From: Rhizophagus irregularis
Lineage: Eukaryota; Glomeromycota; Glomeromycetes; Glomerales; Glomeraceae
Direction: 5' to 3'
DNA length: 64,000 bases
Assembly: GCF_026210795.1 (NCBI RefSeq)
Contig: NC_089447.1
Coordinates: 1,800,501-1,864,500 of the forward strand
Under the pieces are notes generated by a model. That model had not been told where the DNA came from. It ran no database searches and worked only from the letters and a program-made list of their open reading frames with translations. The position numbers and the translations under genes are program-made. Positions within the stretch are counted from its first letter, which is position 1; every line of letters starts with the position of its first letter. Positions 3,442 through 49,217 of the stretch are shown piece by piece.

Positions 3442-4639
3442 TAAAGCTCTGAACAGTTCGGGCTAAACCGGGGAACCAATCCGAAACTGGCTCAAAATTC
3501 GGTTCGGTTCGGTTCGGGTATTAGAACCGAAAAACCGGTGGTTCGGTTCGGTTTAATCCAATTTTTATAAAAATGCGAAAAATCGAATAGCCGGCCATCT
3601 AGTGATCGTATAAAGTCGAGCCATATATCATTGGATTCGTCTCGACGAGACGCGTCGAATGGTGGTAAGATCATGTCTCTAGCATCGATAGAATACACGT
3701 TAACCTACGCTAAATGATTTATCAATAATTTGAATTAGCAAGCTATCTATCGGTGCTAGAGACGTGATCTTACCACCATTCGACGCGTCTCAGTGAGACG
3801 AATCCAATGAATATAAATTCGTTCGTGTACGACCACTAGATGGCGAATAATATCAAGTTTCGCATTTTTTTAAAATTTTCGAGCGTTAAAAATTAAAAAT
3901 TCCGATACATGAATTTATTCATCGTCCAATGGTCGTACAAATATGAATTAGGACTCATTGGATTCGTCTCGATGAGACGAGTCGAATGGTGGTAAGATCA
4001 CGTCTCTAGCATCGATAGATAGCTTGCTAATGCCAATTTTTTATAAATTATTTAGCGTGAATTAACTTACGATCTATTAATGCTAGAGACATGATCTCAC
4101 CACCATTCGACTCGTCTCATCGAGACAAATCCAATGAGTCCTAATTCATATTTGTACGACCATTGGACGATGAATAAATTCATGTATCGGAATTTTTAAT
4201 TTTTAACGCTCGAAAATTTTAAAAAAATGCGAAACTTGATATTATTCGCCATCTAGTGGTCGTACACGAACGAATTTATATTCATTGGATTCGTCTCACT
4301 GAGACGCGTCGAATGGCGCTAAGATCATGTCTCTAGCACCGATAGATAGCTTGCTAATTCAAATTATTGATAAATCATTTAGCGTGGGTTAACGTGTGTT
4401 CTATCGATGCTAAAGACAAGATCTTACCACCATTCGACGCATCTCGTCGAGACGAATCCAATGATATATGGCTCGACTTTATACGATCACTAGATGGCCG
4501 GCTATTCGATTTTTCGCATTTTTATAAAAATCAGATTAAACTGAACCGAACCGCCGGTTTTTCAGTTCGGTTCTTACGGGTTTTAGCTCTAATCCGAACC
4601 GTCTATAATCCGGACCAAACCGACCCGTTCAGAGCTTTA
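3442..4639. mobile_element. 1.2-kb hAT-like foldback element with perfect 8-bp TSD
   Basis: A near-complete inverted repeat centred about 4041-4046; each arm is about 590 bp. The tips are TAAAGCTCTGAAC on both ends, fitting hAT YARNG, and the flanks carry the exact 8-bp duplication AGCATTAG (3434-3441 and 4640-4647). Just inside the left tip is a period-5 array of GGTTC (about 3494-3512), mirrored in diverged form on the right. Each arm carries about three copies of a hairpin module (TTGGATTCGTCTCGACGAGA then GTCGAATGGTGGTAAGATCA). The two open frames on the arms (3492-3698 minus, 4367-4723 plus) are the same repeat read from both sides, not genes. Confidence 0.9.
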
Positions 4640-4647
4640 AGCATTAG

Positions 4648-6103
4648 TAATTTCTGGTCCTATCATTGTGAATCTGCATTATCACAGTTTGATTTGTTAG
4701 GGCTTGAGATGTTTGAACAATAAAATATATATCTTAATTATCTATTTTATTTAATCAGGCCTAAAACATGCCTAATTTGACCTGTTTCACTTTTGATAAG
4801 AAATGATTATTGAATGATTACAGGTAAAATTTTTAATCTTATTAATGTATTATTAATAATTCTTTATAATTATTATTAGTGTCAAGTTCAAGTACCTATA
4901 ATAAGAAACCTTTTATACATTTAATGAATTAGGAAATTTTATGGTAAACAACTGTGCTTACCATATATTGGAAGCAACGTTCGATCTAGAAGTGAAGGAA
5001 GAATACTGAACAATTATAAGGGTGAAAAAGATGGTGTAAATTTATATTACTTAGAATTTATACTCACTCTCGAATGATACATTTTATAGAATAATATGGT
5101 ACCGAAAGTCTATACTTGACAATAAAAAAGTAACACTTAAAAAACTTTCAACTTCTTAAAAAAAATACAATTTAGAAAAAATAAACTGGTAACTTTAACT
5201 TTATTCTTTAAGATAAGCTTTATCAAATTACCAGTCAGATTTTTAAAAGAAGATTTATGTAAAAAGTTATAAGCATTTAAAATTGCATGATTTTCATATG
5301 ATCAGCCCAAATTTGAAATAAAATATGTTGGCCAGAACTTATAATAAATTGGGCTAACTTCATGCATCGTGATAATGCCAACTCAAATTATCATATTATG
5401 ATAAATCAAATGTAAAAAAAAATTTTTATCAATGTATGACTTTTATAAAATGGTAGTTGCGATAAATCTACTTTTTCTTATATTTTATTTTGTTTGTAAT
5501 ATCATAATAAATTTTCAAAAATCACATTTTATTAGTACTTTTTACAAGAAATTCCAGTTTTTTATTGGCTGAATTCTGGATCATATGATATAGAATCGGC
5601 TCAGAAAATTAAAACAAAATTACATAATTGTTAAGTATAGATTTTTGTCACCATAAAAAAAACAGTTAATTGAAAAAAACCAAGCGAAAAAAAAGCAAAC
5701 ATAGAAATATATTACAAAATACTGGTTATATTATAATAATTGTAAGAATGTTAAATATGAGTTAAACGATAAAAATATATTCTAATATAACTTTAATTAT
5801 TATAGAATGCTATGGATATAAATGAAGAATCAGAAATTAAAGAATCATATGACAGGCTTAATTTCACAGAATTTGATAAATCTTATTTAGCGATAGATTC
5901 CAAAAAAATGTGAAAGCTAAAATCTGGACAAAAAATTGAAAAAATAATTTATTAGTAAAATTGATTTCCTTTATTTAATATTCTAATAACTTGCAACTGT
6001 TTAATAATATTACAACTACACTCAGAAATAAATTTTGTAATCATGTCTTTTAGCATTTTATTTAGCTTTAGACTATCCTTTAAATATTTCACTCCATTTG
6101 ATC
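4648..6103. other. Repeat-bearing spacer
   Basis: AT-rich. It contains one copy of a dispersed repeat (5205-5465) and a 34-codon open stretch starting MDINEESEIKESYDRLNF near 5814 that may be a gene fragment. The run at 6104 starts TAAAGCTTTAAATGG followed by GGTCC/GGTTC-like pentamers, resembling the left tip of an hAT-like element, but no matching right tip was found. Confidence 0.45.
5205..5465. repeat. Dispersed repeat, copy 1
   Basis: About 250 bp aligns in direct orientation with 17155-17400, for example AAAAGTTATAAGYATTTAAA and the shared run TATGACTTTTATAAAAT near the end. It is non-coding and the element class is unknown. Confidence 0.7.
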
Positions 6104-6438
6104 TAAAGCTTTAAATGGTTCGAATTGGTCTGGGTTGGGAAGTAACCCAGAACCGGACCAAAAAATTAGTTCATTTCAGTCCAGTCTGGTTTATATTAAA
6201 AGGAAAATCTGTGGAGCCGGACTGGACCAGTTATTTTGGTCAGTCCAAGTTCAGTATATAATAAAAAACGTTGCAAAAACATTTTTTTAATTATAATTAC
6301 TTAGAAAAAACGTTTCGCAATGTTATTTCACAACGTTTTTTCTTTAAATTAATTAAAAAAACATTGCAGCAAAACTTTATTTAAATAAATTGAAATATTC
6401 TAGAACTATCTTAATATCATTAATTTATAAACCATTTA

Positions 6439-6805
6439 CTTTACTAAAAATGACCAATTTTTTGAAATGATTTTGTAATAATTTTAAAATACTACAAAAA
6501 TACATTTAATACATCAAAATGGTTTTATTATATTTTTGTTATTATTTTGTAATTATATTGTATCTAGGTCTATAAGAATAACTCAAAATAATATCACAAT
6601 AATTTTTTAATGTTTTTGTTATTATTTTATTATTATAATATAATTAACTTTGATATTATTTTAATATTTTAATTTCAAAAATACCTTAAATATATTTTGA
6701 TATATTTTAAAAATTTTACAAAATAATTGCACAATTGTTTTGAAAGCTATTGTATCTATATAGATCTATAAAAATATTTCAAAAAATTGGCCATTTTTAG
6801 TAAAG
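6439..6805. mobile_element. mariner-type MITE with TA duplication
   Basis: A 367-bp foldback flanked by TA. The left end reads CTTTACTAAAAATGACCAAT and the inverted right end reads CTTTACTAAAAATGGCCAAT, followed by TTTTTTGAAAT on both. Imperfect complementarity continues through much of each arm. It has no coding capacity. Confidence 0.75.
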
Positions 6806-7024
6806 TAGCAATAATAAAAATATAAAATTTCATACTAGTTTTCATGTAATTTTTATGGATTTTACAAAAATTCTATGGAAATCCATAAGAATTCCATGTA
6901 ATATATCAAAAAAAAAAATTTTACTATTCACACGGTAATTAATATTTTAACAATACTTTAAAAAATAAGTTACACAATATAAATAAATAAAATTTCAAAT
7001 TTTGGACTATTGTTCATAATTGTT

Positions 7025-7232
7025 ATTTATAGATGACCGCCACCATACAAACATATAGTCTATTTATGAAATCAAATGATCACTCAACAGTGTACACATA
7101 GGTATTTTATATATGATGAATAGTTTGTAGCTTAATAATATATAAGTAGTTTATAGAATTATACTTAGTATAAAATTTCTTTTATTTTCGTTAATAAAAC
7201 TGCAAATACACTGCAATAAAAAAAAAATAAGA
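7025..7232 (+). repeat. Poly(A)-tailed dispersed repeat, copy 1
   Basis: About 200 bp matches the reverse complement of 34663-34865 and ends in an A-run after ACTGCAAATACACTGCAAT. The best block is around ACTCAACAGTGYACA. The A-tail in the same place in both copies suggests retroposition, as a SINE or a LINE/mRNA 3' end; the class is inference. Confidence 0.65.
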
Positions 7233-11160: not shown

Positions 11161-11164
11161 TAAC

Positions 11165-13292: not shown

Positions 13293-13315
13293 GTAATTTT
13301 GAAAATGGCAATAAA

Positions 13316-17398: not shown

Positions 17399-17406
17399 TT
17401 GCTTTA

Positions 17407-18582: not shown

Positions 18583-19519
18583 TATACTTGGGTGCCGAAA
18601 CCTTTTGGCTATATACCAAAATTGAAACACTTTTTGGCATATAATAGTTTCTGAAATTTCAAATCCCAAACTATTGCCAAAATCCCAAATCATTGCCAAA
18701 ATCCCAAACTATTGAAACTATTGCCAAAATCCAAATCATTGCCAAAATTCCAAATCATTGCCAAAATCAAATTCATTGCTAAAATCCAAAATTAGAGTTC
18801 TGAACTAAAGCGAAATTTTTTTTTCAATTCAGTTTGGTAATATACGGTAAGTTTTTATAATAATTAATATTAATTTTTCTTTTACTGAATTTTCAGTGGT
18901 TTATCTACAAAAACTTCTCAAAAGTCAGTGAAAGTGCCTAGTGTTGAAAGTGTATGTTGTCCAAAATGTTGTATAATTATATAATCACGTAAACAGGATT
19001 GCAAAAGTTGAATAGGGACTGGAGAATATACTAAACATTAACTTTATTATTTAAGTGATAAAATAATAAAATCAACATGACCTCTATTAAGGTGAAGACT
19101 TTGATACGATGCCTCCAGTGGGATGTTGGTAGGTATCACTACCAAAACTTTTATGAATTATTCTGCTGTGTCACCTCTTCTGTATTCTATATAAACTATG
19201 AGTACTGGAAAAAAAGTACTGGCTAGGTTTTTATTATATTATATAGATTATACTTTTGGGATTTGGCAATGGTTTTGAGTTTCAGCAATTATTTGGGATT
19301 TCAATAAAGGTTTAGAATTTTGGCAACAGTTTGGAATTTTAGCAACGGTTTGGAATTTTAACAACGGTTTGGGATTTTGGCAATAGTTTAGAATTTAGGC
19401 AATAGTTTGGGATTTGGAATTTAAGATTTGGAATTTTGGCAAAATTCTGAAACTATATTTTGGTATATGTCAAATCCTAAACATATTTTAGCACCTATAA
19501 GTTTCAGCACCCAAGTCTA
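18583..19519. mobile_element. 937-bp hAT-like foldback element with 19-bp subterminal arrays
   Basis: The left tip TATACTTGGGTGCCGAAACC matches the inverted right tip TAGACTTGGGTGCTGAAACT. The flanks GAGCTGAT (18575-18582) and AAGTTGAT (19520-19527) agree at 6 of 8 bases. Each arm carries repeated units of the type AAATCCCAAATCATTGCCA; the middle (about 18840-19250) is unique, with no convincing gene. Confidence 0.72.
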
Positions 19520-19720: not shown

Positions 19721-19849
19721 TTTATGGCATAATATTTCGAAAAATTTCAAAATATTACGTAAGTTTACAATTTCGTAAGATTTATGTGATATTACGGTTA
19801 AAATATTACGTGAGTTTTCAATATCGTAAGATTTACGCAATATTACGGT

Positions 19850-20335
19850 CAAAATATTCTGCAAATTTACGAAACTGTAAACCTGCGTAATATTACGGTT
19901 GAAATATTTCGAAAATTTACGAAACTGTAAACCTGCGTAATATTACGGTTGAAATATTTCGAAAATTTACGAAACTGTAAACCTGCGTAATATTACGGTT
20001 AAAATATTTCGAAAATTTACGAAACTGTAAACCTGCGTAATATTACGGTTGAAATATTTCGAAAATTTACGAAACTGTAAACCTGCGTAATATTACGGTT
20101 AAAATATTTCGAAAATTTACGAAACTGTAAACCTGCGTAATATTACGGTTAAAATATTTCGAAAATTTACGAAACTGTAAACCTGCGTAATATTACGGTC
20201 AAAATATTCTGCAAATTTACGAAACTGTAAACCTGCATAATATTACGGTTGAAATATTTCGAAAATTTACGAAACTGTAAACCTGCGTAATATTACGGTT
20301 GAAATATTTCGAAAATTTACGAGATTGTAAACTGC
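19850..20335. repeat. 50-bp satellite, about 9-10 copies
   Basis: Tandem units of exactly 50 bp (for example GAAACTGTAA recurs at 19921 and 19971). Each unit contains two short palindromes, CGTAATATTACG and TTTCGAAA, and the phrase GAAACTGTAAACCTG. Copies differ by a few substitutions; the right edge decays into unique sequence. Confidence 0.92.
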
Positions 20336-23085: not shown

Positions 23086-23565
23086 TTATCGAAATATTTT
23101 GAAATATTACGAAATATTAAGTTGTGTAAAATCACAGAATATTACGAATCGTCAAATTATGGAACATTACGCATCATAGAATTTCGAAATATTTTAAAAA
23201 GTTGCGAAGTATTACGCAGTAAAATTACGGAATATTACGAATCGTAAAATTACGAAGCCTTGCATACAGTAATATTTCGAAATATTTTAAAAAGTTACAA
23301 AATATTACGCTTACGCAAACTTGCGGCGGGTCTGAAAACTTACGAAATATTATGTAAAATTACGAAATATTGCGAACCGCAAAATTACGGAATATTACAA
23401 ATCGTAAAATTACGAAGCTTTGCATATCGTAATATTTTGAAATATTTTAAAAAGTTACGAAATATTACGCTTACGCAAACTTGCGGCGGGTCTGGAAGCT
23501 TACGAAATATTATGATATGTAAACTTGCGCAACTTTTCACACTATATAATTTCCTGATGCAGTTG
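23086..23565. repeat. AATATTACG-rich decayed repeat, inverted relative of the 19.7-20.3 kb arm
   Basis: Many copies of GAAATATTACG, with a local direct duplication (CTTACGCAAACTTGCGGCGG at about 23311 and 23470). The right end, inverted, matches 19669-19718 (CATCAGGAAATT ... GCGYAAGTTTAC). The frame 23260-23763 is this repeat read through and is not a gene. Confidence 0.65.
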
Positions 23566-24052: not shown

Positions 24053-27000
24053 TTACCAGAAAGAAATCCTAAGAGGTTGAACTGTTAAGCGGCGCAGAAA
24101 ATCCAAGTGCGAGATCCAAGATCCACCCCGAATTATAGAAGAGGATATCCAAGAAATCCAGGAATCCTGAGAAACTGACGCCAAAGAAGAGTTGTGTTGT
24201 TGTGGAGAAGTAGTATTAGGGAAAGAATTTGTAGATGGGCCACGTAATTTGGAAGCAGCCGAGATACCCTGCGACTCCTCCCAAGCATGAAAAAGAACAT
24301 TCCGACACAGCCAAATTTCACCATATAATTCGACTTGGAAGTCATTAAGAAGGGGAGAAATAATCTTGTATATAACAGAGAGAGGAAAGTATTGATTCAA
24401 AAATGCCGTTAAATGCGCAGGCAACAACCCTCGAGTAAGCCAAAGACAGGATGAAGAAGGAGCTTCATAGTTCCAGCAATCCAAAGCAAAGAACTCGGTA
24501 TGAAAGGAATTATCCAAAGATTTCAAGGCTAGGAAAGAAGATAAACAAGAATCTCTAAATTTAATAACTTCAGACCGGTGTGTTAAACAGGGATTTAAAT
24601 CCGGTAAAATATAAGGACAAGTCCAAAGATGATTCAAATCTTCAGGAGCAGAATTACACTGCGGACAGAGCCAGTCAGGAGAATATAAGTAAGGTTTACG
24701 TTGTTGAAGAGTAGTTAAGGTAGGCAACATATCCAAAAGAAGTTTAATACGGAAGATCCAAAATTCAGGACGACCATTCTTATGTGAAACGAAACCTTTA
24801 ATTTGTGAAAGGCAAAAATATATACCAGCCCAATCAAAAAGTGAAGGAGAACCAAGAGCAGTAAAACGCGCTAGCGAACAAAAAGATAAAAGAGCACGAG
24901 CATCTGCAATAGAGCGGAGAAAATGTCGAATATTCACGTCAATAGGCAAGGAGTTAAAAGTCAACAAGCATGGAGCATGACAAAATGTTGAAAGTGGAAT
25001 ATTGGGTTGTAAAGACGAATGAGCAGCTTTTGCCAAAGAATCCGCTTGTATATTGTAGATGTCATCGCCATGGGCAGGGACTTTAATCAAATCGACATTA
25101 AGATTACGATCCATGATAAGTTGTCGAATAGAAAGCCAAAGAAGATGATTAGGTTCTCGGAGCAACTTCGGTGAGAAAGGAGCATCAACAAACCGTGTCC
25201 ATAGTGAAATTAACTGATTACAATCAGTATGAATAGAGATTGACGAGTCACGGGAAAGGGCGTTCAATCCTAATAGAACAGCAGAAATTTCGGAACGCAA
25301 AGCGGAAGGAAAGTAAGAAGGGAGATGCATGGAAGAAGATTCCAGAAGAAGTCCAACATCATCAAGAGCAATCCAAGCAGAAGTCATGGAAGAAGGCGAA
25401 GAAGCATTGGCAGGATGGAACGAACCATCTGTGTACAGAGATTGCACCGAAAGTGGTAAAATAGTGTCTTCAATTCTATCGATTCTATCCTTAAAGAGAG
25501 GAGAAAGAGCGAGAGACGCGTTCGAAAAATGAACAAGAGCCAAGGAAGTCGCATAACTCCATGAAGTAGACAGAGTAATGGGAAGATAAGCCGCGAAAAC
25601 TTTGGCATTTCGGGTAGGATAGCCCACAGTATCCGATAGAGTTACATTAAAAAAACATTTCTCACTATTACAGCGTTGTCTGATGGCAGATTTCATGGAT
25701 AAGGCGGGAATGTTAAGAGCACAACCGGGACAAGGGTCATAGGATCGTTCATCAGCCGAGGTAGATACAGGAAGCCAATGAGACATAATAGCCGAGTTTT
25801 GTTTCTTATAAGTGATACACACACGACCAACAGATAAAGTTTGAGTAGCAGAGTCAAGAGTAACAGCCCATTGAGGATAAAAAGAATAATCTTTAACAGT
25901 ATGATCTAATAAACAAGGAGAAGCTAAAGTAAAAGAAGAATTAATAAAGTATGAAGATAAAAGTAAAGTAGAAGAAGAAGAAGAGAGAAAATTATTATTG
26001 ATAAAAGTAAACCAATTAGGGATCCGTCCTTTACGACCAACGATACTAAGATAACGAAGGTCAGGCCAATTCATAAGATAACGTCCACAAGGAGAAACCA
26101 ACTGAGCAAGCGCAAATATATTCAGGTTTTTCCAAAGTTTCCAACTCGATTGAAAAATGGAATGAGGTAGAATAGATCGGAGTGGCAGAGCAGGTTGTAG
26201 ATCATGCCTCGGAGGCCGGAAGGAAAGAGACCACGTGATGTTCAAACGTGAAGAAAACAATAACGAATTAAACAAAGTGTGCGTTCGCAAAGAAACGATC
26301 TGCGACCATGGTTCTAAGCTAATAGTAGACGGGCAACTTTCAGCACCCAAATATCCTTGAAGATAGGAGATAGCATAAAGAGCAAAATCTTTGAAATCAG
26401 GATGAGTGAAAATTTTTTGCCAAGATGCCATATGGGAAGAAAGAAAGTGATAGAAAGCATTTTGAATCGAAAAGGGAAGTTTAAGAAATAACAAGGGCAA
26501 CGGAGTAGTCGTAGCAAGACCAGCTTTTCTTCGAAGTACTGAAAACAGGGGCATGACAATTGATTGAATAGTACTTTCAGAGAAAAGGGTAGTTTGAAGA
26601 CGAAATTCCAATCGCGGAAGAAGGACAGCATTATAGAGATAGGCCACATGTTGTGCTAATAATTTCTTCGGTCCCAGGAGAGCTGCCATATCTTTAACCA
26701 TGGAACGCGCTTGTTTGAGAACAAAATCAGAAGAGGCGGATAAAGAAAACCAAACGCCTAAAAAGCGAAAGGAAGCATGCAAAGATAAAGAGGAAAGGGA
26801 AAGAAACAAATCAGAAACTAAAAAAGAAGGTGTAAGATCAAAAATAATCTTTGAGGAAGGGGAAGAAGATGAAAGAAGAACATATTTAGCTGAATTAGCT
26901 TGAACATTATTTAAAGTATAAAATTCAGCAGTAATAGAAAGACGGTCTTCTATTCCAGATTTTGAAGAAGCAATAAGTGTAGAATCATCCATAAACGTTA

Positions 27001-29437
27001 AATGTGAAATTGGTAAAGAATGTTGTTCAAATTCAAGTGGAGAGTAATTTAAAAGAGCTGAAGATTTTAAAATAAAAGGATCTCGTGCTTCTTGATTCAA
27101 AACAGTGAGTAAGGGATCCAAATAAATAACCCAAAGAAGAGGGGAAATAATTTCTCCTTGATCGATACCAACACGTACTCTATAAGCAGCTGTATCGCCA
27201 TGACATGTAATTATCTTATTATTTCGTCGTGTAAAAAGATTTAAAATAAATTGCACTAAAAGTGCAGGGATATGTAACCTATCTAAAGCTAGTTTAAGCA
27301 TATTTAAATCCATAGAATCAAAAGCTTTAGAGATATCTTGAGAAACGATCCATAGTTCCTGATCATCAGTAGAGTCATGTTTATGTTGATGAATAATCGC
27401 ATCCAGCATTTTGATAGGGACATCAGTAGAACCACCAGGTAAACCAGCAAAATTACCACCTTGAAGAATTTTATTATCAGCAAGGATGTTGGAAAGACGA
27501 TTCGTGATGACCTTAACTACACATTTACGAACTGTTTCCAGAAGTGTAATAGGTCGAGTGTTCTTAAGTTGAGCATCAAAGTCATGAGGTTTAGGAATAG
27601 GATAAACCACGGCTTCACGCCAGTCAGCAGGAATATCACCACGAGAAAGGCAAGTATTGGCAAGTAAAAGAGAAAAATCCAAGGCTTCACCGGACAAATG
27701 TTTGATCATCTCATAAGAAATTTTTGAAGGGCCGGAAGCTTTATTATTTGGCATGGAGGAAATCACAGTAGACCATTCTTGTAGGGAAATAGGCGCCAAA
27801 ACAGGATCATATAATGAAGCAGATACATTTGTAAGAGGAGTGTAAGCTTGTTGCCATCGGGCGGGAAATGAAGTGATGGAAGAATAGTGGACCAACGGAG
27901 GAGAAACAATTGATTGAAAATGAGAAACAGCCGCATGTTTAATATCTGAAGGATCCGTTAATAAAGTAGGAGTTGAGTCCAAAACGACCAGAACACGGTC
28001 AAGAACAATTGAACGTTTTTCTACTGATAAGGCAGAATCGATAAAAGTACCGAGCGAGGTCGAAAAGTGTTCATCACGTAGTGCAGTATAATATTCCACT
28101 GAGTCCGTAAGGTGTTGGGCGAATTTAGTAGATAAAAAGGCAGAAACTAAATTCTTCTGTGATCGTAAAAACGATTTAAATACAGATACAGGGGTTGTAG
28201 AATAGGTAGGAACTGAGTAATCAGGGAGTAAGGATGCAAGATTTTCAAGATGGGAGGGTAAAGCGGCAGTCATTTGCGCAATCTGAGTAAGCCGATTAGA
28301 ACGACGAGTAGTAAGGCGATATAAGAATCGATCTAAAAACTTGTTAATAGCAATAAGTTTAGTTAATTCAGGAGAGTACGAATGTCGGTGTGTGTTAGAG
28401 ACTTTTTGAAAGGGTAAAGTTTCAATAGCAGCACTAATTATGGCAGCTTTCAATACATGCCACATACGATCAAGAGAAAGAGAAGAGAAATCAAAATTAG
28501 GGTGATATTGTCTATCTAAATAAACTCCAAGAGAATCATCTACTTCAGTGGTAAAATTATTCCATTGTTCAACTGAAGTGGAAGCGTAAGAGAAAATAGT
28601 ACGCATTTCTTTTTTTTGTTTGAGACGAGATTTAGCCAAAATAGCCAGGCAAGAACTGAAGTCAAAAACAGTTAAAAGAACTTTGTGATCTGTAAAAGGA
28701 CGATCAAGGAGATCCGGGCAAGTAACCACTTGCGAAAAAAGACCAGGGGCAGGAAAACCAGGTGAAGACCAAATATAATCCAGTCTTGAAGATCCATTAT
28801 CATGAAAAAAAGTGGGATCAGGACCATTTGTAGAGGAGTGAGCTTGATGATCGGTAAAAAACTGAGAAGAAAGCAAGCGAAGAAGCTTAAAATGATTAGG
28901 TGAATAATTAGAATGAGCGATTACATCAGCATTGAAGTCGCCAAGAATAACTACAAAATAATTATTAGCACGGGCATAATCGAGCCAAGAAAGAAGTTTG
29001 GCAATAAGATCATTGCAAATAGATTGATGAACAGAACCAGAAGAGGGATAATATATAGAAATAATAGAAATTTTAGTTTGATAAAAGAACAAGTCTAATT
29101 TAAGAAGTCGACCGTTCCAAGAATCAATTGTTTGAACATGTTTATGAAGGGGATTTCGTAACAAAATACCAACACCATCATGAGGGCGAAAAGAAGATGA
29201 ACAAGCCCAATAAGATTTAAAGTGATGTTGGGAGTGTTCGGTTTTGAAAATAAATTTTGCATTTGAAGGGGAAAGACGCGTATCATTAATAGATAAAGCA
29301 CCAAAAGAGAAGTGGAGAAAAAAATTAAGCAAATGTTGTTGTCGAACTGGGGAACATAAACCATTAACATTTAATTGACCAAATTTAATAAGGGGAGAGG
29401 GGTGAGGGGAAAAATTATGTTTATTGTTGTCCATCAT
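24053..29437 (-). CDS. LINE ORF2: APE endonuclease, reverse transcriptase, RNase H
   Basis: An uninterrupted 1794-residue polyprotein that would nick target DNA and copy the element RNA. APE endonuclease at residues 15-255: QLNVNGL, GDFN near 166, LDYIW near 220, TDHK near 250. Reverse transcriptase at about 560-850: DISKAFD with the first catalytic Asp near 701, IDQGEIISPLLW near 759, and FMDD near 815 (Phe-Met in place of the usual Tyr/Phe-Ala). RNase H at about 1330-1470: YTDGSF, RSEISAVLLGL, HTDCNQL, and KVPAHGDDIYNIQADSLAKA, so all acidic positions look present. A CPQC ... HLWTCP knuckle lies near 1591-1608 and a CPGC/C-x4-C cluster near 1235-1261. The start is the first of two Met codons, 49 nt after the ORF1 stop, suggesting reinitiation. 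The smaller frames on both strands over this interval are shadows. Confidence 0.95.
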   Translation of the reverse strand: MMDNNKHNFSPHPSPLIKFGQLNVNGLCSPVRQQHLLNFFLHFSFGALSINDTRLSPSNAKFIFKTEHSQHHFKSYWACSSSFRPHDGVGILLRNPLHKHVQTIDSWNGRLLKLDLFFYQTKISIISIYYPSSGSVHQSICNDLIAKLLSWLDYARANNYFVVILGDFNADVIAHSNYSPNHFKLLRLLSSQFFTDHQAHSSTNGPDPTFFHDNGSSRLDYIWSSPGFPAPGLFSQVVTCPDLLDRPFTDHKVLLTVFDFSSCLAILAKSRLKQKKEMRTIFSYASTSVEQWNNFTTEVDDSLGVYLDRQYHPNFDFSSLSLDRMWHVLKAAIISAAIETLPFQKVSNTHRHSYSPELTKLIAINKFLDRFLYRLTTRRSNRLTQIAQMTAALPSHLENLASLLPDYSVPTYSTTPVSVFKSFLRSQKNLVSAFLSTKFAQHLTDSVEYYTALRDEHFSTSLGTFIDSALSVEKRSIVLDRVLVVLDSTPTLLTDPSDIKHAAVSHFQSIVSPPLVHYSSITSFPARWQQAYTPLTNVSASLYDPVLAPISLQEWSTVISSMPNNKASGPSKISYEMIKHLSGEALDFSLLLANTCLSRGDIPADWREAVVYPIPKPHDFDAQLKNTRPITLLETVRKCVVKVITNRLSNILADNKILQGGNFAGLPGGSTDVPIKMLDAIIHQHKHDSTDDQELWIVSQDISKAFDSMDLNMLKLALDRLHIPALLVQFILNLFTRRNNKIITCHGDTAAYRVRVGIDQGEIISPLLWVIYLDPLLTVLNQEARDPFILKSSALLNYSPLEFEQHSLPISHLTFMDDSTLIASSKSGIEDRLSITAEFYTLNNVQANSAKYVLLSSSSPSSKIIFDLTPSFLVSDLFLSLSSLSLHASFRFLGVWFSLSASSDFVLKQARSMVKDMAALLGPKKLLAQHVAYLYNAVLLPRLEFRLQTTLFSESTIQSIVMPLFSVLRRKAGLATTTPLPLLFLKLPFSIQNAFYHFLSSHMASWQKIFTHPDFKDFALYAISYLQGYLGAESCPSTISLEPWSQIVSLRTHTLFNSLLFSSRLNITWSLSFRPPRHDLQPALPLRSILPHSIFQSSWKLWKNLNIFALAQLVSPCGRYLMNWPDLRYLSIVGRKGRIPNWFTFINNNFLSSSSSTLLLSSYFINSSFTLASPCLLDHTVKDYSFYPQWAVTLDSATQTLSVGRVCITYKKQNSAIMSHWLPVSTSADERSYDPCPGCALNIPALSMKSAIRQRCNSEKCFFNVTLSDTVGYPTRNAKVFAAYLPITLSTSWSYATSLALVHFSNASLALSPLFKDRIDRIEDTILPLSVQSLYTDGSFHPANASSPSSMTSAWIALDDVGLLLESSSMHLPSYFPSALRSEISAVLLGLNALSRDSSISIHTDCNQLISLWTRFVDAPFSPKLLREPNHLLWLSIRQLIMDRNLNVDLIKVPAHGDDIYNIQADSLAKAAHSSLQPNIPLSTFCHAPCLLTFNSLPIDVNIRHFLRSIADARALLSFCSLARFTALGSPSLFDWAGIYFCLSQIKGFVSHKNGRPEFWIFRIKLLLDMLPTLTTLQQRKPYLYSPDWLCPQCNSAPEDLNHLWTCPYILPDLNPCLTHRSEVIKFRDSCLSSFLALKSLDNSFHTEFFALDCWNYEAPSSSCLWLTRGLLPAHLTAFLNQYFPLSVIYKIISPLLNDFQVELYGEIWLCRNVLFHAWEESQGISAASKLRGPSTNSFPNTTSPQQHNSSLASVSQDSWISWISSSIIRGGSWISHLDFLRRLTVQPLRISFW

Positions 29438-29486
29438 TATTACACACTGATAAATCGGTAATAAAGAAGAGGGAAAAAAAGAACAA

Positions 29487-31503
29487 TTATTGATTAGCTT
29501 GGCCTTGTTGCCGAGCTAAGATGAGGTTGTTTTGTTGGATTCCTTCTTTAATCGAGCCAGCCAAAGAGGCAACGGTATCGGAAAGAGAGGAGAGACGCTG
29601 TTCCATATCAATAGGGGAGGAAGGAGCGATGTTGGAAGGTGGAATGGGAGCAAAATGAGGAATCGGGGAAAAACCACTTGTTGATTGCAAAGGGGGAGAA
29701 TTAACATCAACGAGGATATTATTATCAGTTCGATTCACTGTATCATCCCATTCTTGCATAGAGGAAAGGATGTAGGAAGGAGGTTTAGTGACAAAAGGGC
29801 CAGGAATAGGAGCACGAGCAGCCATAGCAGATTCCAAATTAGTGATGCGGCTGTTCATGGTAGCAAATTGTGTGGTAAGAAGGGCTAATTCTTCAACTAC
29901 TTTTTCAAGAGCAGCACCAATAGATTTCCAATCAGTAAGCACAGTAAGAGGAGCAGGGTATGTAACATCCATGCCATCAGCATAGTGATCAAGTTCATTT
30001 GCATCAGGAATACGGCGACGTTGATTATTATTGTTGTTGTTAAGATTGTCGCGATTCCATGGTCGATGTTGAGAACGAGAACGAGATTGTTGTCGGTTAT
30101 TAGGTCTGGATTTAGAACGATGGCGAGAAGCGATTGGTACGGCTTTGTCCATCATTATTGTTATCAGGGCGGGCAAAACGGTTATGTCGTTTAGCAGGAT
30201 GAGAAGGAGGTAGATGCTTGTTATATAAAGCACGTAATTTATCATTAGATTGCCAAGGGCGAGAAGGGCGATTAGGTCTAGATGAAGAACCACATCGATC
30301 AGGGGTTACAATTAGGGCGACCACATCGATGACGAAGTAGGCTTCCATCCGGAGAATGCCAGGTAAGGCCAACTTTGCGAGACACATGAAATAGATTTAG
30401 CATTTTCCATAGCCGTTTCAGAGGCAAAATGGCAATAGGCGTAAGATTTGGGATTGTAAGAATTCATAGAGAAGGGAACATTGATAGATTTAGCGGAAAT
30501 TTTATCGGCAATTTCAGCAAGATCGAGTGCTATAGTGCCACGCGGGAGACCGGCAAGTAAAGCAACATAAGCGCGTCTTTCAGCGCGTTGTTCAGGGTGA
30601 GAAAGTAGCGGGGCAGATACGCAAACAATGTCCTTCACAAAGGACGCCCCAGGTAGAGTCGAGGTTCTGTAAAGCACCAGTAGATTCAAAGGTAATGTAT
30701 GCAGTACGATAAAGTTTAGATAAACGGGTATGGCAACGAGTAATATTGCCGTAACGAGAAAAGGTACCACGCAGAAGAGCGTCAGTAAGAAAAAGGGGGA
30801 TATCGGTAATCACCAGGGTACGCACGTGTTCATCAGCCTTAATAGCCTGGGAGTCATATGCATGGAAATGCAAGCCAAACAAAGAATCCATAGGGGAGGC
30901 TGTGGCGTTGTCAAGATCTTCCTTTTTTCGGAAGTGGACGATGATCCTCTTCAAATCGTTGGATCCACTACACGTGGCACGACTACCATAAGAGGAGAAC
31001 AAGGAAAGTTGTCGATCAACCGCGTCGCACGCTTCACAGTTCGAAGCGAAGTGATTCCAAAAGCCATCAACATCATTAGGAGCGGCCGAGGCGTAGAAAA
31101 GTGTAGGTTGAGATTGTACTGCAGCTTGGGACGCGTCCGGAGAGGCAGCACGTTTAGGGAAAGAGACTGCGGGAGTAATTTCAGGGCTTTTGCCTTTATC
31201 GTTGTTGTTAGCAGGGGCGTGTTGTGAAGCATCGAGAGAGGAGGTATCGGGTTGAGAAGGTATCTCGGCGGAAGTTGTCTCAGCAGGGGCCAGGGGAGGC
31301 GTGAGAGGTTTATCACATCCATGACAGAGTCTTCGCACTGACTCTGGTACGTTTATTAGTAGAGGTGGTCGAAGGTGGAGTGTTCGAAGGGCCAGACATG
31401 GGAACGACCAGAAACGTTGCCAGTTGGAGGCTCTAGAGACAGGACGTTTAGATGTAGTATCTTTGTTAGACTGGTTATTTTTCTTTTTGTTATCTTTACC
31501 CAT
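29487..31503 (-). pseudogene. LINE ORF1 (RRM/zinc-knuckle RNA-binding protein) with four same-direction frame changes
   Basis: Four or five overlapping frames make up one protein of about 660 residues. Frame A (31503-30592): a basic start (MGKDNKKKNN), a Pro/Ser-rich stretch, and an RRM-like fold around RTLVITDIPLFLTDALLRGT and YRTAYITF. Frame B (to about 30390): a second RRM with YVALLAGLP and KSYAYCHFASE. Frame C: a knuckle-like LTWHSPDGSLLRHRCGRP then NCNP. Frame D: DRCGSSSRPNRPSRPW, basic. Frame E (to 29487): an Arg/Ser-rich stretch, then a coiled-coil-like tail (ALEKVVEELALLTTQFATMN). Each change needs one base to be skipped in the sense of reading. Likely role is binding element RNA to form the particle. 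Broken copy, assembly error or recoding are all possible. Confidence 0.75.
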
Positions 31504-31639
31504 TTGTAAAGTGTCGTAGTAGTTATCTAAAATAAAGAAATTATAAAGAAAAAGTAATAAAAAACTCCGAAAAAATTTTTTATTTTTTCGTAAATATTGT
31601 CAAGTGAGCAGAACGGGAGAGAGTTTTTTTTTAGTTTTT

Positions 31640-33546: not shown

Positions 33547-34095
33547 TAGAGTTTTGAATGGGTCAGGTCAGGTCAAGTTAATTGATAATCCTGACCTGAA
33601 AATTTTTTTCAGTTCAGTTATATCAGATTATCTGTTTAACCTGACCTGAACTGAAACCTGAAAATTTTAAGGATTTTTATTAAAATATTAAAAAAAAATG
33701 GTGCAAAACATTTTTTAAAAGGTGTGTAACTAACTTTTTTTATATAAAATCAATATAAAAAAATGAATTCTGATACCGCAATTCACTTTTTATATAAAAT
33801 CAATATAAAAAAATGAATTCTGATACCGCAATTCACTTTTTATATATAAAATCAATATAAAAAATGAATTCTAATACCGTAATTTACTTTTTATATATAG
33901 AATTAACATAAAAATATGAATTCTAATACCATCACTTATATTATATAAAATCATAGTTTCAGGTTAACAGGTTATTCGGGTTATATTGATATTATAATCT
34001 GAACTGATGCTGAATTGAAATTGCTAAATCTGACCTGATAAATTCAAATCAACCTGTCAGGTTACCTGAATTTGGTCAACCTGTTCAGAACTCTA
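33547..34095. mobile_element. 549-bp hAT-like element with GGTCA subterminal array
   Basis: The left tip TAGAGTTTTGAATGGGTCAG matches the inverted right tip TAGAGTTCTGAACAGGTTGA. Flanks AGATAGAA (33539-33546) and GAATAGAA (34096-34103) agree at 6 of 8. Next to the left tip GGTCA repeats with period 5, and TGACC/AACCTG repeats mirror it on the right. The core has about four copies of a unit near 54-60 bp containing AAAATGAATTCTGATACCGC (33730-33950). Confidence 0.78.
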
Positions 34096-34103
34096 GAATA
34101 GAA

Positions 34104-35433: not shown

Positions 35434-35441
35434 AACATGGC

Positions 35442-38418: not shown

Positions 38419-38420
38419 TA

Positions 38421-38615: not shown

Positions 38616-38617
38616 TA

Positions 38618-40416: not shown

Positions 40417-41214
40417 ATGGCCGATACGAATAAAGTACCTGACTCCTCACAAAATGAACAAAATGAAGTAAATAACCCTGAAGAACTAAAGAAACCTGAA
40501 GAACCAAAGAAACCCGAAGAACCAAAGAGTACCGAAGAACCACAGAAACCTGAAGAACCGAAGAAACCTGAAGAACCAAAGAGTACCGAAGAACCACAGA
40601 AACCTGAAGAACCGAAGAAACCTGAAGAACCAAAGAATACCGAAGAACTAAAGAAACCTGAAGAACCAAAGAAACCTGAAGAACCAAAGAGTACCGAAGA
40701 ACCACAGAAACCTGAAGAACCGAAGAAACCTGAAGAACCAAAGAATACCGAAGAACTAAAGAAACCTGAAGAACCAAAGAAACCTGAAGAACTAAAGAAA
40801 CCTGAAGAACCAAAGAATACTGAAGAACCAAAGAAACCTGAAGAACCAAAGAGTACTGAAGAACCACAGAAACCTGATGAACCGAAGAAACCTGAAGAAC
40901 CTGAAGAACTAAAGAAAACTGAAGAACAGAAGAAACCTGATGAACAAAAGGACGAACCGCAGCCAAATACTGTTATTGTCGCACAAGCAGCTGGAGAACA
41001 AAATGGAACTAATGAGGACCCACCTATTCCGCCACCTAAACATAATGAAACTAATAATGAAACTAGAGAAGTGAAGAGTGGTGATAATAAGAGTGGTGAT
41101 AAGAGTGATAAGAGAAAGAGTTTAAAAAATAGAATAAAAGACTTTTTTTTTAGTAAAAAGAAAACTCCAGATACTCCAGATACTCCAGAAACTTCAGAAA
41201 CAACAGAAAATTAA
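40417..41214 (+). CDS. PEEP-repeat, acidic/Lys-rich disordered protein
   Basis: The preferred start is the ATG at 40417 (MADTNKVPDSSQNEQNE). The frame stays open upstream to 40351 but that part is AT-rich leader. About 265 residues. Residues 25-175 are tandem repeats of KKPEEP, KSTEEP, QKPEEP and KNTEEL, with a longer 54-bp period (18 residues) recurring several times. After the repeats come a Pro-rich linker (PPIPPPKH), an Asn/Asp/Ser-rich stretch, and a basic segment KRKSLKNRIKDFFFSKKK, then TPDTPETSETTEN. There is no signal peptide or membrane segment. It is probably intrinsically disordered; function is unknown. The antisense frame (40415-40966) is its shadow. Copy number probably varies between strains. 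Confidence 0.85.
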   Translation: MADTNKVPDSSQNEQNEVNNPEELKKPEEPKKPEEPKSTEEPQKPEEPKKPEEPKSTEEPQKPEEPKKPEEPKNTEELKKPEEPKKPEEPKSTEEPQKPEEPKKPEEPKNTEELKKPEEPKKPEELKKPEEPKNTEEPKKPEEPKSTEEPQKPDEPKKPEEPEELKKTEEQKKPDEQKDEPQPNTVIVAQAAGEQNGTNEDPPIPPPKHNETNNETREVKSGDNKSGDKSDKRKSLKNRIKDFFFSKKKTPDTPDTPETSETTEN

Positions 41215-45668: not shown

Positions 45669-47040
45669 CATATTTTTCATCAATTTGTTGAATATTTATT
45701 GAATTATAAATGTTCGTTTCACTATATTTATATAAATTTGGAATACTTGAAATAAGTAACAAAGTAAAATTATTATTTCCAATTAATTAATAGTTAAAAC
45801 ATATGATTATTCCTTTTATCTGTTATATTTAATGGGTATGTGTTATCACTATTAGCTTTCTTCTTTGTTGTAATAATACTGAACTGAATTAATGTGAGTA
45901 ATGTAAAAAAAAATTTCAGAGTATTTAAAGATAAATACTAATAGTAAATAACCTTTACTAGTTTAATGTGATTGTTTTACAAAACTGTCTATAACCTGCA
46001 GAAGACTATTTTTGCATCTGGTATTTAGATCTTTCATGATTGTTACCACTTACCATATATATATCTGATATAATTTATTACACTCAAGTTTAATTTCTTA
46101 TTCCTATCTGATTATTTAATAATTATTTTAATTATACAATATGTATTAACCTTACTAAAAGTATTTGGATGGCACTTTTCAAAACATTATACTGCTATTC
46201 AATAATAATTGTAAAAAATAATTAAAGCTTATTAGATTTATTATATAAGATGTATTAATTGTAAATAAGTTATTATCAAAAGTTTCTAAATTAAAAAATA
46301 CTAATAACTTTTCATTTATTAAAGCCAGAAATAGGAAAATATCAATATGTTTTGTTATAAAGAATTTAATGAGGTTTGGCTTATTTTTTTATGATTATAT
46401 CAAAGTTATACCGATATTTATATCATATCCTCACATATAGTAGGAAATAAAATTTTATTGGTATAACAAGTTTTTAATAGTATATCAGTATATCGAATAT
46501 CGGTATATCGAGGTTAAACTGTATTTTACTTATTATTTTTTAAAAACATTATAAAATATATGAATTTTTAAAAATCTACTATTTTAACATTTATAATATT
46601 ATAGTAAAACTTGAATAATACTAATATACTCAAATGGTTTAAATAAAAAAAAGCAAAAAATCATATTTTTCCAATATATTAATATTAAAAATATGATTTT
46701 ACTATTATTGGATTTCTCTTATTAAAACAAATCCAATGATATAAATTTTATTAAAATTTAACTAGTAGATTACTTAAAATTAAAGATATATAATATAAAA
46801 ATCTTTGTAATATATAATTTTGGTTAGAATTAATATATAAACTAGTTAAGTTCGTCAATGAAAAAATTAACGTTAATATTAAAAAAAAACTTGAAAGTAT
46901 AAAGTTGAAATCATTTTCAAAGATTAGCAAACATTTTACCTTCCAGCCAACTGATTAGCACATACATATAATTGTATAGCATAACCTGTGGATAAATAAC
47001 CTTATTTGCTTTGAAGTCTCAGCTTCACACATGTTTCACA
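45669..47040. other. AT-rich intergenic region
   Basis: Holds a possible end of a pogo-type MITE near 46500-46530 (inverse: ACAGTTTAACCTCGATATAC) with no certain partner, and an eroded hairpin module at 46712-46745 (ATTGGATTTCTCTTATTAAA). No gene recognised. Confidence 0.4.
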
Positions 47041-47049
47041 TTTCCAGAT

Positions 47050-48010
47050 AGGATAGAGAACGAATATGTTGTTATAAATTGTAAGTATGGTGGTAATGAA
47101 AAGAAAATTATTTGTTTGATTGATGATAAGGATTTAGTAAGTGTAATCTGAACTTAAGGATTTAAGGTGGATTTTTCAATCATTGTTGATATATGTAAGT
47201 ATCAGTTTACTATTTTTTGAGAATAAATTATGATAGGTGTGACATACTTCTAACAAAAAATAATTTGAATGTTTTATAGTGTAACAGCTATTTTTGTTAT
47301 AAAATTTTTTTCAAATTAAGACATTATTCAGGTTAACAACTAATAATTATATTGATCTTTCCAGATTCAATAGAAAGTTAGCTAACACAGCCAATTATGA
47401 AAAGATATTGAAGCACATTTTGAAAGATATAGCTATAAAGCATAAGACCTGCATTCACATCACTAGTGTGAATGAAGTAACAAGATATGAATTTATTTCT
47501 TCTGTTCTTTATGGTGTTATCTCTTGTTATGATGATAAAGTAAAAGCATATTCAGACTCCAGAATATGAGTTATCTGAAAGTCATAATAAAGGGCCAGTG
47601 GATTGGGTTATTAAGATTGGAGATACAATTATTATTATTATTAAGTCTAAAAGAGAGGATATTAATCAAAGTGTTAGTTAAAATGCAATTCAGTTACAAG
47701 TTTTGTCTCAACATAATAAAAAGAAACGCATATATAATGAGGCTTTACGTGAAAATGTAATGTATGATATTGTTTTGATAGGGATCAACTGGATTATAAT
47801 TAAATTAGTCACTACTAGCAAATGTATGACAATGATTATAGAAATGTTGAAGTATTATTGAGTTCGTGAACACCATTTACTTTTCCTATTAATGAGAGTA
47901 TGTTCGACAAAAGTCTTATATTTGAAAAACTCAAGAATTTATTTGGGCAAATCAAATGAATATTTGATTTCAGATAGAATCACAAGAATCATTGAAGCAA
48001 GTAAAAACAG
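47050..48010 (+). pseudogene. Decayed gene of an uncharacterised family, PD-(D/E)XK-like segment
   Basis: Coding fragments in order on the plus strand: INCKYGGNEKKIICLIDDKD near 47070; a spliced-looking continuation FNRKLANTANYEKILKHI from about 47366; VNEVTRYEFISSVLYG; then, after a frameshift near 47567, HNKGPVDWVIKIGDT followed by IIIIIKSKREDINQ, an in-frame TAA, NAIQLQVLSQHNKKKRIYNE, and RTPFTFPINES in another frame near 47870. The DW ... K-S-K-R-E-D spacing resembles the D-(E)xK core of PD-(D/E)XK nucleases, with Ser where the acidic residue is expected; this is a tentative reading. Stops and shifts show it is inactive. The hAT-like element at 48060 lies just beyond. Confidence 0.5.
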
Positions 48011-48059
48011 ACATATGTATAAATATTAGTATAGAAAAAAAATCGTCATGTATCACAGA

Positions 48060-49217
48060 TAGTGCTCTGAAAAAAATCTGATCTGATCTGAATCTACAGA
48101 TTTGATCTGAGTCAGATCCAGTTTGATTTTCAAAATTTTGATCTATAGATCAGATTTTTTTTTTAAAAAATTTTTTCCTGGACGAATGAATGCTGGACAC
48201 TAAATGATTAAGATTTAAAAGAATGAACTAGGTAAGTTCATTTCTTTTTTTTTATTATTTTTACTTTAAAAGAATGTAATTAATAGTTTCCTTCTTTTTT
48301 ATTAGAAAGCCTAAATGAACAAAGTCTAACGATCAGGATTTAAAAAAAAAAATTTTTTTTTTAGTTTTTTTTTATTAACATTCTCTTTTTTTTTAGAAAA
48401 CCTGGACGTAGTCAAAGTCATTAATGACCAGGATTTAAAAAAAAATGAACTATAGTAAGTTTATTTTTTTTTTTAAGTTTTTTTTTATTTTACTTAAAGG
48501 AATGTAATTAATGTTCCCTTTTTTTTTTTAGAAAATCTAGACGAATGAAGTCATTAAGACATTAACAACCAGAATTTAAAAAAAAGAATGAACTATGGTA
48601 AGTTCATTTTTTTTTTAAGATTTTTTTTTATTTTTACTTAAAAGAACATAATTAACATTCACTTTCTTTTATTTTTAAAAAACCTGAATATGAGACGAAG
48701 CTGAACAACCAGAATTTAAAAGAATGAACTATGGTAAGTTTATTTTTTTATTTTATTTTTTTTTTTATTTGTAGAAATATAATTAACGTTCCCTTTCTTT
48801 TTTTTAGAAAACCTGAATGAACAAAATCATTAATGACTAAGATTTAAAAAAAAATAAACTATAGTAAATTCATTTCTTTTTTTTAAGTTTTTTTTTTATT
48901 TTTACTTAAGGGAACGTAATTAATGTTTCCTTTCTTTTATTTTTAGAAAATCTGAATGTGAGACAAAGCTAAACGGCCAGAATTTAAAAGAACGAACTAT
49001 AGTAAGTTAAAAAACATAATTAACGTTTTCTTTCCTTTTTTTAATTCAAGAACCAGATCTGAACATTCAGATTAAATTCAAATCAGATTCAAATGGATTT
49101 GAACTAGATTCAAATCAAATTAAATCAAATCTAATCAGATCAGATTTATTAAAATAAAAATCAAATCAAATCAGATTTAAGCTGAATCCAATTTGAACTG
49201 ATCTGTTAGAAGCACTA
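48060..49217. mobile_element. 1158-bp hAT-like element with GATCT array and seven long tandem units
   Basis: Flanked by ATCACAGA (48052-48059) and ATCACAGG (49218-49225), 7 of 8 equal. The tips TAGTGCTCTGAAA and, inverted, TAGTGCTTCTAACAG fit YARNG. Inside the left tip GATCT repeats with period 5; on the right AAATCAGATT/AGATC units mirror it. The core holds about seven units of 115-140 bp, each with GAACTATGGTAAGTTCATTT-like sequence followed by T runs and AAAACCTGAA. No coding capacity. Confidence 0.82.

What the first reader, a model, noticed from the sequence alone, without database searches (positions are those of the whole stretch)
3442..49217. One tip, many pentamers: hAT-like elements each with its own period-5 subterminal array
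Elements at 3442, 33547 and 48060 share a tip of type TARNG-CTCTGAA and the 8-bp duplication size, but the array just inside differs: GGTTC, GGTCA and GATCT, each with period 5 and mirrored at the other end. Partial tips at 6104 (GGTCC-like) and 49289 (GAGTT) may be further members. Elements at 18583 (19-bp units) and 49626 (GATTGA, period 6, different tip) show the same design. A constant cleavage tip plus a fast-changing, self-repeating recognition array would be an unusual way for transposons to diversify; I do not know a description of this pattern.
Basis: partly seen in the sequence, partly recalled or inferred. Interest (0 to 1): 0.8.

Follow-up and report, generated by a model that had tools for sequence, protein, structure and literature searches.

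The report
Shared-tip jumping genes, different inner codes
A fungal genome carries at least five related kinds of hAT jumping gene that end in nearly the same 12 letters but differ in the short tandem repeat just inside, each kind lying beside its own enzyme; this fits known hAT biology, but having so many in one genome makes it a good natural test of how these enzymes recognise their own DNA.

Summary
Window elements 3442-4639, 33547-34095 and 48060-49217 share the tip TARNG-CTCTGAA, lie between 8-bp duplications (8/8, 6/8, 7/8 matches) and carry inverted arrays of GGTTC, GGTCA and GATCT. Genome-wide the tip occurs 420 times, the reversed control 108. On two whole contigs 27 of 41 exact tips have a significant array, of five kinds, the commonest (GTTC-type) making 14. 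Tips with GATC, GAGT, GGGTC, GGTC and GTTC arrays lie beside five different transposase lineages, all with the Pfam hAT dimerisation domain, grouped away from two other hATs of the genome. Two lineages have a complete coding copy; three are linked by one end only. Likely mechanism: the catalytic core reads the common tip, BED fingers read the array. Precedents: Hermes, Herves, Ac, and diverse hAT DNA-binding domains, one from Rhizophagus. "Fast-changing" is not supported overall: the BED finger is only slightly more diverged than the catalytic fragment, clearly more in one lineage. The new part is a phased, co-resident set of repeat words. No binding was tested.

The parts
3442..4639 (.). Non-autonomous hAT-type element, GGTTC (GTTC-core) family; tips TAAAGCTCTGAA at both ends
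   Evidence: duplication AGCATTAG 8/8, tips identical; GGTTC class, p 0.005 left, 0.02 right
3434..3441 (.). left 8-bp target duplication AGCATTAG
4640..4647 (.). right 8-bp target duplication AGCATTAG
3454..3560 (+). left subterminal GGTTC array, first unit directly after the tip (C-AGTTC); inner limit approximate
33547..34095 (.). Non-autonomous hAT-type element, GGTCA (GGTC-core) family; tips TAGAGTTTTGAA / TAGAGTTCTGAA
   Evidence: duplication 6/8; p 0.005 both ends
48060..49217 (.). Non-autonomous hAT-type element, GATCT (GATC-core) family; tips TAGTGCTCTGAA / TAGTGCTTCTAA
   Evidence: duplication 7/8; p 0.005 both ends
493..805 (.).
49288..49400 (+). One-sided end TAATGCTCTGAA with GAGTC/GAGTT units; no mate found; right limit approximate
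6104..6260 (+). Worn one-sided end TAAAGCTTTAAA with GGTTC/GGTCT/GGACC words; no mate found; right limit approximate
18583..19519 (.). Element with another tip (TATACTTGGGTG / TAGACTTGGGTG), 19-bp-unit inverted arrays, duplication 6/8; not a member of the CTCTGAA group
49626..49763 (.). 138-bp inverted-repeat element, tip GGGGGTCTTCAC, GATTGA arrays, flanks share only ATT; a different kind of transposon

Best explanation
The elements are mostly non-autonomous copies of at least five related hAT transposon lineages living in one genome. The lineages keep nearly the same 12-bp cleavage tip (TARNG-CTCTGAA) and make 8-bp target duplications, but each has its own tandem subterminal repeat: a 4-bp core plus one looser base (GTTC+R, GGTC+R, GATC+A/T, GAGT+mostly Y; a fifth lineage has GGGTC), with the first unit often set in a fixed register one base after the tip. 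Shown here: tips, arrays, duplications, and a separate hAT transposase lineage beside each array. Inferred: the catalytic core of each transposase acts at the common tip, its N-terminal BED zinc finger binds the core of its own array, and many closely spaced sites let a multimer bind strongly and only to its own family, so that lineages sharing a tip do not cross-mobilise.
For: Tip excess over the reversed control: 420 against 108, TAGAG 103 against 2, TAGTG 67 against 12, TAAAGCTCTGAAC 155 against 1. Mates: 30 of 52 exact tips in L001-L040 have an inverted mate with a matching 8-bp duplication (23 tips with a perfect one) against 31 of 1040 control trials. Arrays: 27 of the 41 exact tips on contigs C1 and C2 significant: 14 GTTC-type (GGTTC or GTTCA classes), 7 GGTC, 3 GAGT, 2 GATC, 1 GGGTC. 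Coding elements: GATC, L061, 5.74 kb, duplication 8/8; GGTC, C16:2055872-2059456, 3.6 kb, duplication 7/8; GAGT, four loci where the tip is followed within 0.1-0.35 kb by the open frame that holds the BED exon; GGGTC, L079; GTTC, L080 and the C8 locus. PF05699 above its cut-off in all five. Grouped away from two other hATs with support 100/99. Spacer variation is lopsided, GTT-CA-GTT 37 against GTT-TG-GTT 4, as if the core were held and the spacer free. The residues that contact bases in Hermes (64, 66, 67, 70; PMC10368747), placed by eye on the alignment, differ between most lineages.
Against: No binding or mobility data. Three lineages are linked by one end only. For GTTC the tip of L080 lies 2.9 kb from the BED exon, and the second tip of the C8 locus has no array and no matching duplication; no second end was found for the GAGT and GGGTC loci in the stretches fetched and tested. 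The GGGTC and GAGT lineages have nearly the same contact residues, so residue and unit do not map one to one; only five lineages exist to compare. The commonest unit type is 14 of 27 arrays, 14 of the 41 C1/C2 tips have no significant array, and about two of 41 would pass p 0.05 by chance. GGTCA triple units occur at 373 places (often several per element) against 103 exact TAGAG tips; of 54 loci among the first 100 places, 27 are near a tip or paired like element ends and 27 are unexplained. The left end of the GGTC-lineage coding element is mixed, GATCT-class pentamers outnumbering GGTCA-class ones 25 to 9.
Confidence: 0.8

Rival explanations
1. One transposase mobilises all families through the common tip; the arrays are neutral tandem repeats that ride along.
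For: The tip is nearly the same in all families; most copies seen are non-autonomous; maize Ds1 elements can move with few or no repeats (PMC3260210, passages read).
Against: Each array type lies beside its own transposase lineage; arrays are at both ends of the complete elements, often in register with the tip (T at position 17 in 26 of 26 ends sorted to the GTTC group), and hold the core while the spacer varies.
Confidence: 0.12
2. The units are worn forms of one or two older units that contained CpG (GGGTC to GGTCA, GAGTC to GAGTT, GGTTC to AGTTC), so the diversity is partly mutational decay.
For: CG, CA and TG occur at the same unit junction; GAGTT-rich ends (49288, L062) go with the GAGTC lineage by array, and L062 also by its transposase fragment.
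Against: Decay should give CA and TG equally; counts are 37:4 and 44:4 for two unit types and 6:12 for the third (all ends scanned together). CpG observed/expected is 1.02 in the window, so there is no general CpG loss. Cores GTTC, GGTC, GATC and GAGT do not convert into one another by CpG wear alone.
Confidence: 0.1
3. The arrays are ordinary microsatellites or chance composition beside the tips.
For: GGTCA array places outnumber exact TAGAG tips, and half of the loci examined have no tip or partner in view.
Against: 373 GGTCAGGTCAGGTCAGG against 6 for the reversed word; 22 of 54 loci have two arrays 0.6-1.8 kb apart, as element ends would; significance against shuffles at 27 of 41 tips.
Confidence: 0.04
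4. The elements are moved by the large Pfam-less protein found inside L010 and not by hAT enzymes.
For: L010 is a 5.6-kb element with perfect duplication and GGTC arrays that contains this gene.
Against: The gene unit (L010 about 670-5003) recurs in L041, L058 and L059, and its first 3.0 kb in L057, without the tips, so it is a separate element nested in the GGTC one; none of 19 fetched relatives lies between a pair of such tips in the stretch fetched.
Confidence: 0.01

Closest known systems
Hermes (hAT, house fly)
   Same: hAT with 8-bp target duplications; short tip plus subterminal repeats bound by BED fingers; position of repeats relative to the tip matters (PMC10368747, passages read)
   Different: Hermes sites (AAGT) are scattered and asymmetric, not head-to-tail at period 5; here five lineages share a tip
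Herves (hAT, Anopheles gambiae)
   Same: Short motif repeated near both ends, sufficient for transposase binding; authors state that binding regions differ among hATs and give specificity (PMC3143072, passages read)
   Different: 8-bp motif CG/AATTCAT, a single element; no shared-tip set in the passages read
Ac/Ds (hAT, maize)
   Same: TIR-sharing group with 8-bp duplications and a subterminal hexamer AAACGG bound by the transposase; many non-autonomous copies (PMC3260210, passages read)
   Different: One repeat word; here several words with one tip
CGG-binding proteins from hAT-19-type transposons
   Same: Direct evidence that hAT-type BED plus Hermes DNA-binding domains have diverse specificities, for the hAT proteins matching their subterminal regions; one tested protein is from Rhizophagus irregularis (PMC8097297, parts 1 and 2 of 3 read)
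   Different: Mostly domesticated host genes; tips and tandem arrays are not the subject. Whether that Rhizophagus protein belongs to these lineages was not tested
Curated Rhizophagus irregularis transposon library
   Same: Names several hAT groups in this fungus, such as hAT-19, hAT-Ac and hAT-Tag1 (PMC11075540, passages read)
   Different: In the passages read, no subterminal repeats or shared tips are described

Membership tests
hAT superfamily | 8-bp target site duplication | tested here: met
   Window 8/8, 6/8, 7/8; 30 of 52 exact tips have a mate with a matching duplication, 23 perfect, control 31 of 1040
hAT superfamily | Short terminal inverted repeat of the T/CA..G type (recalled) | tested here: met
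   TARNG-CTCTGAA
hAT superfamily | C-terminal hAT dimerisation domain PF05699 | tested here: met
   Above the curated cut-off in all five lineages, E 2.9e-9 to 4.8e-6; exon pieces of 44-50 aa were scanned
hAT superfamily | N-terminal BED zinc finger | tested here: inconclusive
   zf-BED above cut-off in three of the five lineages: GTTC (L080), GAGT (L085), GATC (C11:2903911-2903991, model positions 2-26, E 1.9e-4), and in relatives L081-L083. Below cut-off for GGTC (L076, E 0.007) and GGGTC (L079, E 0.071), where introns split the finger; none for L090. The Cys/His pattern is visible by eye
hAT superfamily | RNase H fold with a DDE catalytic triad | tested here: inconclusive
   PF14372 (hAT-like RNase-H) above cut-off in one GATC exon; no Pfam match in the catalytic exons of L078 and L079; triad not mapped
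hAT superfamily | Subterminal repeats next to the tip | tested here: met
hAT superfamily | BED finger binds the subterminal repeats | not testable with these tools
   needs DNA-binding assays
Ac/Ds family | Ac/Ds 11-bp tip and AAACGG hexamer | tested here: not met
   tips are TARNG-CTCTGAA, units are pentamers; the Ac tip itself is recalled
hAT subfamily (Ac, Tag1, hAT-19, Buster types) | place in a reference hAT tree | not tested
   no reference transposases were aligned; the tree holds only this genome's sequences

The most novel reading that the evidence does not exclude
In this fungus one hAT clade keeps a common cleavage tip and splits into insulated lineages mainly by re-writing a 4-bp word that is copied head to tail every 5 bp; the tandem array lets a changed BED finger gain a full set of new sites through repeat expansion rather than site by site, so the array is a mechanism by which related transposons stop sharing enzymes.
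Probability: 0.3. Interest if true: 0.65.

Novelty: new variant of a known kind. Interest (0 to 1): 0.46.

Why it matters
How a hAT transposase recognises only its own family while related enzymes cut nearly the same tip is an open practical and evolutionary question. A genome with at least five sister lineages that differ in array word and BED finger but hardly in tip is a natural swap experiment: it could give a BED finger recognition code, show whether arrays insulate families, and explain how non-autonomous copies stay loyal to one enzyme.

Tried and rejected
L010 (TAGAG tips, perfect duplication, 5.6 kb) first looked like the autonomous element; its Pfam-less gene proved to be a separate nested element. 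Sixteen relatives of that gene (L041-L056) and three closer ones (L057-L059) were fetched for this; none lies between a pair of tips in the stretch fetched.

The transposase first seen in L060 was taken for the GAGT enzyme and then found to belong to an inner hAT (474-3403, duplication ACTGGTGG, tip TAGTGTTCAGACCC); the outer GAGT element has its own BED and catalytic exons. The transposase in L065 is related to that inner type and was not counted as the GGTC enzyme; whether it is nested was not settled.

The C8 locus first seemed to be a complete GTTC element between two TAAAG tips; its right tip has no array and the flanks do not match (GTATTGAC, ATAACGAG), so only its left tip counts.

CpG decay as the source of unit diversity was considered and mostly rejected. 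A faster-evolving BED finger was looked for: on average it is little more diverged than the catalytic exon, with one lineage (GGGTC) the exception.

Rows dropped or misplaced: 11 exact tips without arrays were left out of the register count (L012 both, L014, L015, L023, L025, L026, L029, L033, L034, L039). In that call ends were sorted by the commonest 4-mer, which put two worn window ends (33547 right, 48060 right) and the tied 6104 end into the GTTC group, so '26 of 26' includes them; it also put GGGTC ends with GGTC. L086 and L062 were left out of the tree for lack of the first catalytic exon; the two outgroup rows have the second exon only. Six of the 14 ingroup rows have no tip in view, and two rows with arrays have variant tips (L085 TAGAGCTCTGGA, L090 TAGTGCTTCGAA).
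Full report
What is there. The window is C19:1800501-1864500 of an assembly of 146.7 Mb in 32 contigs. Its size and low G+C (0.20-0.40 in 4-kb windows) fit Rhizophagus irregularis; that name is my inference, no tool gave it. Three window elements have the described anatomy: 3442-4639 (duplication 8/8), 33547-34095 (6/8) and 48060-49217 (7/8), with tips of the type TARNG-CTCTGAA and arrays of GGTTC, GGTCA and GATCT at both ends. A fourth likely member is at 493-805 (duplication 8/8 but poorly matching tips), and 49288 and 6104 are single ends. The element at 49626 has a different tip and only a 3-bp flank repeat, so it is probably another superfamily; 18583-19519 has another tip and a 6/8 duplication.

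More than chance. TARNGCTCTGAA occurs 420 times in the genome, the reversed word 108 times. By tip: TAGAG 103 against 2, TAGTG 67 against 12, TAAAG followed by C 155 against 1, TAAAG followed by T 59 against 10. I fetched every exact tip on contigs C1 and C2 (41 tips) plus five further loci with tip pairs on C3, C6 and C7 (11 tips): 52 tips in 40 loci. Of the 41, 27 have a pentamer class enriched at p 0.05 or less against 200 Markov shuffles: 14 GTTC-type (classes GGTTC and GTTCA), 7 GGTC, 3 GAGT, 2 GATC, 1 GGGTC; about two of 41 would pass by chance. Of all 52 tips, 30 have an inverted mate with a matching 8-bp duplication (23 perfect; the 30 tips are 23 distinct elements because both ends of seven were counted), against 31 of 1040 control trials. 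The 11 tips with clearly no array (L012 both, L014, L015, L023, L025, L026, L029, L033, L034, L039) have no acceptable mate.

Fine structure. The repeated unit behaves as a 4-bp core with one looser base. In direct tandem pairs of the GTTC group the spacer is G or A (23 and 22). Over all ends scanned, the C of the core is rarely lost at GTT junctions (CG 34, CA 37, TG 4) and at GGT junctions (CA 44, CG 17, TG 4), while AGT junctions go the other way (CG 25, TG 12, CA 6). The commonest distance between successive direct cores is 5 bp in the three groups measured (45, 34 and 54 cases; the palindromic GATC is counted on both strands). The first unit often starts one base after the tip: in ends sorted to GTTC, position 17 is T in 26 of 26 and 18 is C in 22 of 26; in GGTC 13 and 18 of 20; in GAGT 6 and 7 of 11; in GATC 3 and 3 of 7. 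Copies of one family are not independent, and the sorting is rough (see Tried and rejected). For each array type I saw at least one end that begins Y-RNNTC after the tip (for GGGTC the right end of the non-coding copy L038); the left end of the GATC element and the L079 left end are shifted.

The enzymes. hAT dimerisation domains (PF05699) are abundant here: 836 first-look candidates, 150 scored. Comparing positions of tips, hAT and BED matches led to coding loci. GATC: L061, 5.74 kb, tips TAGTGCTCTGAA / TAGTGCTCCTAA, duplication GGTTGAAA 8/8, arrays at both ends. GGTC: C16:2055872-2059456, 3.6 kb, tips TAGAGCTCTGAA / TAGAGCTCCGAA, duplication 7/8; L077 repeats its 5' end, and L090 is a relative at 63% identity with a variant tip and GGTC words. 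GAGT: L078, L085 (tip TAGAGCTCTGGA), the outer element of L060, and L062, in each of which the open frame that holds the BED exon begins 0.1-0.35 kb after the tip. GGGTC: L079. GTTC: L080, with the tip 2.9 kb before the BED exon, and a 3'-side tip with GTTC words on C8 (L097), 2.9 kb from the catalytic match. PF05699 is above its cut-off in an exon of each lineage. zf-BED is above cut-off for GTTC, GAGT (L085) and GATC, and for the relatives L081-L083; it is below cut-off for GGTC and GGGTC, where an intron splits the finger. Several copies carry stops or frameshifts; whether any copy is active was not tested.

Relationships. In a tree of 16 rows built from two catalytic exons, 14 rows separate from two other hATs of this genome with support 100/99; GATC with its relatives (100/99), GAGT (99/96) and GGTC with its relatives (95/97) are supported groups. 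Eight of the 14 have an array and tip in view, two of these with variant tips (L085, L090); six have none in view. Between tip-bearing lineages the second catalytic exon is 38-65% identical. The BED finger is on average little more diverged: mean identity between lineages 43% against 50% for the catalytic exon over 66 pairs, within lineages 69% against 72% over 12 pairs (rows without tips were assigned to lineages by the tree; 25-48 BED columns in the pairs printed). The GGGTC finger is the exception, 18-41% against 41-62%.

How it most likely works. Shown: shared tip, lineage-specific arrays, 8-bp duplications, separate hAT enzymes. Inferred from Hermes (PMC10368747, passages read), where residues 64, 66, 67 and 70 of the BED finger make base contacts and the repeats must be in phase with the tip: BED fingers of a multimer bind the cores, and the catalytic core takes the common tip. 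Placed by eye on the alignment, the four contact positions are S-G-N-R/K for GGTC, N-S/T-N-K for GAGT, N-T-N-R for GGGTC, S-S-S-K for GTTC, and A-S-G-K for GATC (from a frameshifted copy). They differ, but GAGT and GGGTC are close, and five lineages cannot prove a code.

What remains open. GGTCAGGTCAGGTCAGG occurs at 373 places against 6 for the reversed word. The first 100 places make 54 loci; 22 have two arrays 0.6-1.8 kb apart, 9 lie within 1.5 kb of an exact TAGAG tip, 27 either way (random places near a tip: 2 of 2000). The same design appears in other hATs of the genome with another tip, TAGTGTTCMGACCC (inner element of L060, 3' ends of L066 and L067).

Known or new. That hAT enzymes recognise short subterminal repeats that differ from family to family is established (PMC3143072, PMC10368747, PMC3260210, passages read; PMC8097297, parts 1 and 2 of 3 read). 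The listings of six searches of the paper library (only the top 8-20 entries each) show no description of co-resident hAT lineages with one tip and several period-5 arrays, and the passages read of the Rhizophagus transposon library (PMC11075540) do not mention it; subscription papers and Repbase were not searched. I therefore file it as a new variant of a known kind.

Noticed in passing
L010 670-5003 (C3, about 837499-841832) and the places listed (150 matches, some of them pieces of one copy): A large dispersed gene family without a meaningful Pfam match that behaves like a separate mobile element nested in a GGTC element; its main exon has motifs (SDNG, EPGEAK) that could belong to an unfamiliar DDE-type enzyme. 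That reading is from memory and untested.
   Followed up: partly
L060 474-3403; 3' ends of L066 and L067: Other hATs with tip TAGTGTTCMGACCC and their own varying subterminal words; the L060 copy sits inside a GAGT element with duplication ACTGGTGG.
   Followed up: partly
genome-wide, listed (for example C1:5148048-5148934, C2:5328459-5329368, C6:2400794-2401703): GGTCA tandem arrays in pairs about 0.87 kb apart with a 51-bp offset copy and no exact TAGAG tip: probably an abundant related short family with a variant tip.
   Followed up: partly
window 24053-31599, minus strand: Open frames of 1820, 272 and 335 aa in a G+C-richer stretch; the long one reads like a non-LTR retrotransposon (endonuclease, reverse transcriptase, RNase H), recognised from memory.
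   Followed up: no
window 19789-20332 and 23089-23514: Tandem arrays of a 50-bp unit (10.9 copies, 92% match) and of TTACG-rich units of unknown nature.
   Followed up: no
window 40477-40901: 18-bp repeat (23.6 copies) that encodes a proline-glutamate-lysine repeat in a 288-aa frame.
   Followed up: no
L077 457 onward (C25): A GTTC-type tip and array (TAAAGCTCCAAATGGGTCGGTTTGG) begins inside the first exon of a GGTC-lineage transposase gene: one lineage's element apparently disrupting another's.
   Followed up: no
L023, L026, L029: Almost the same TAAAGCTCTGAA-CGCTCGGCGAG sequence at three places on C1 with no array: exact tip matches that belong to some other repeat.
   Followed up: no
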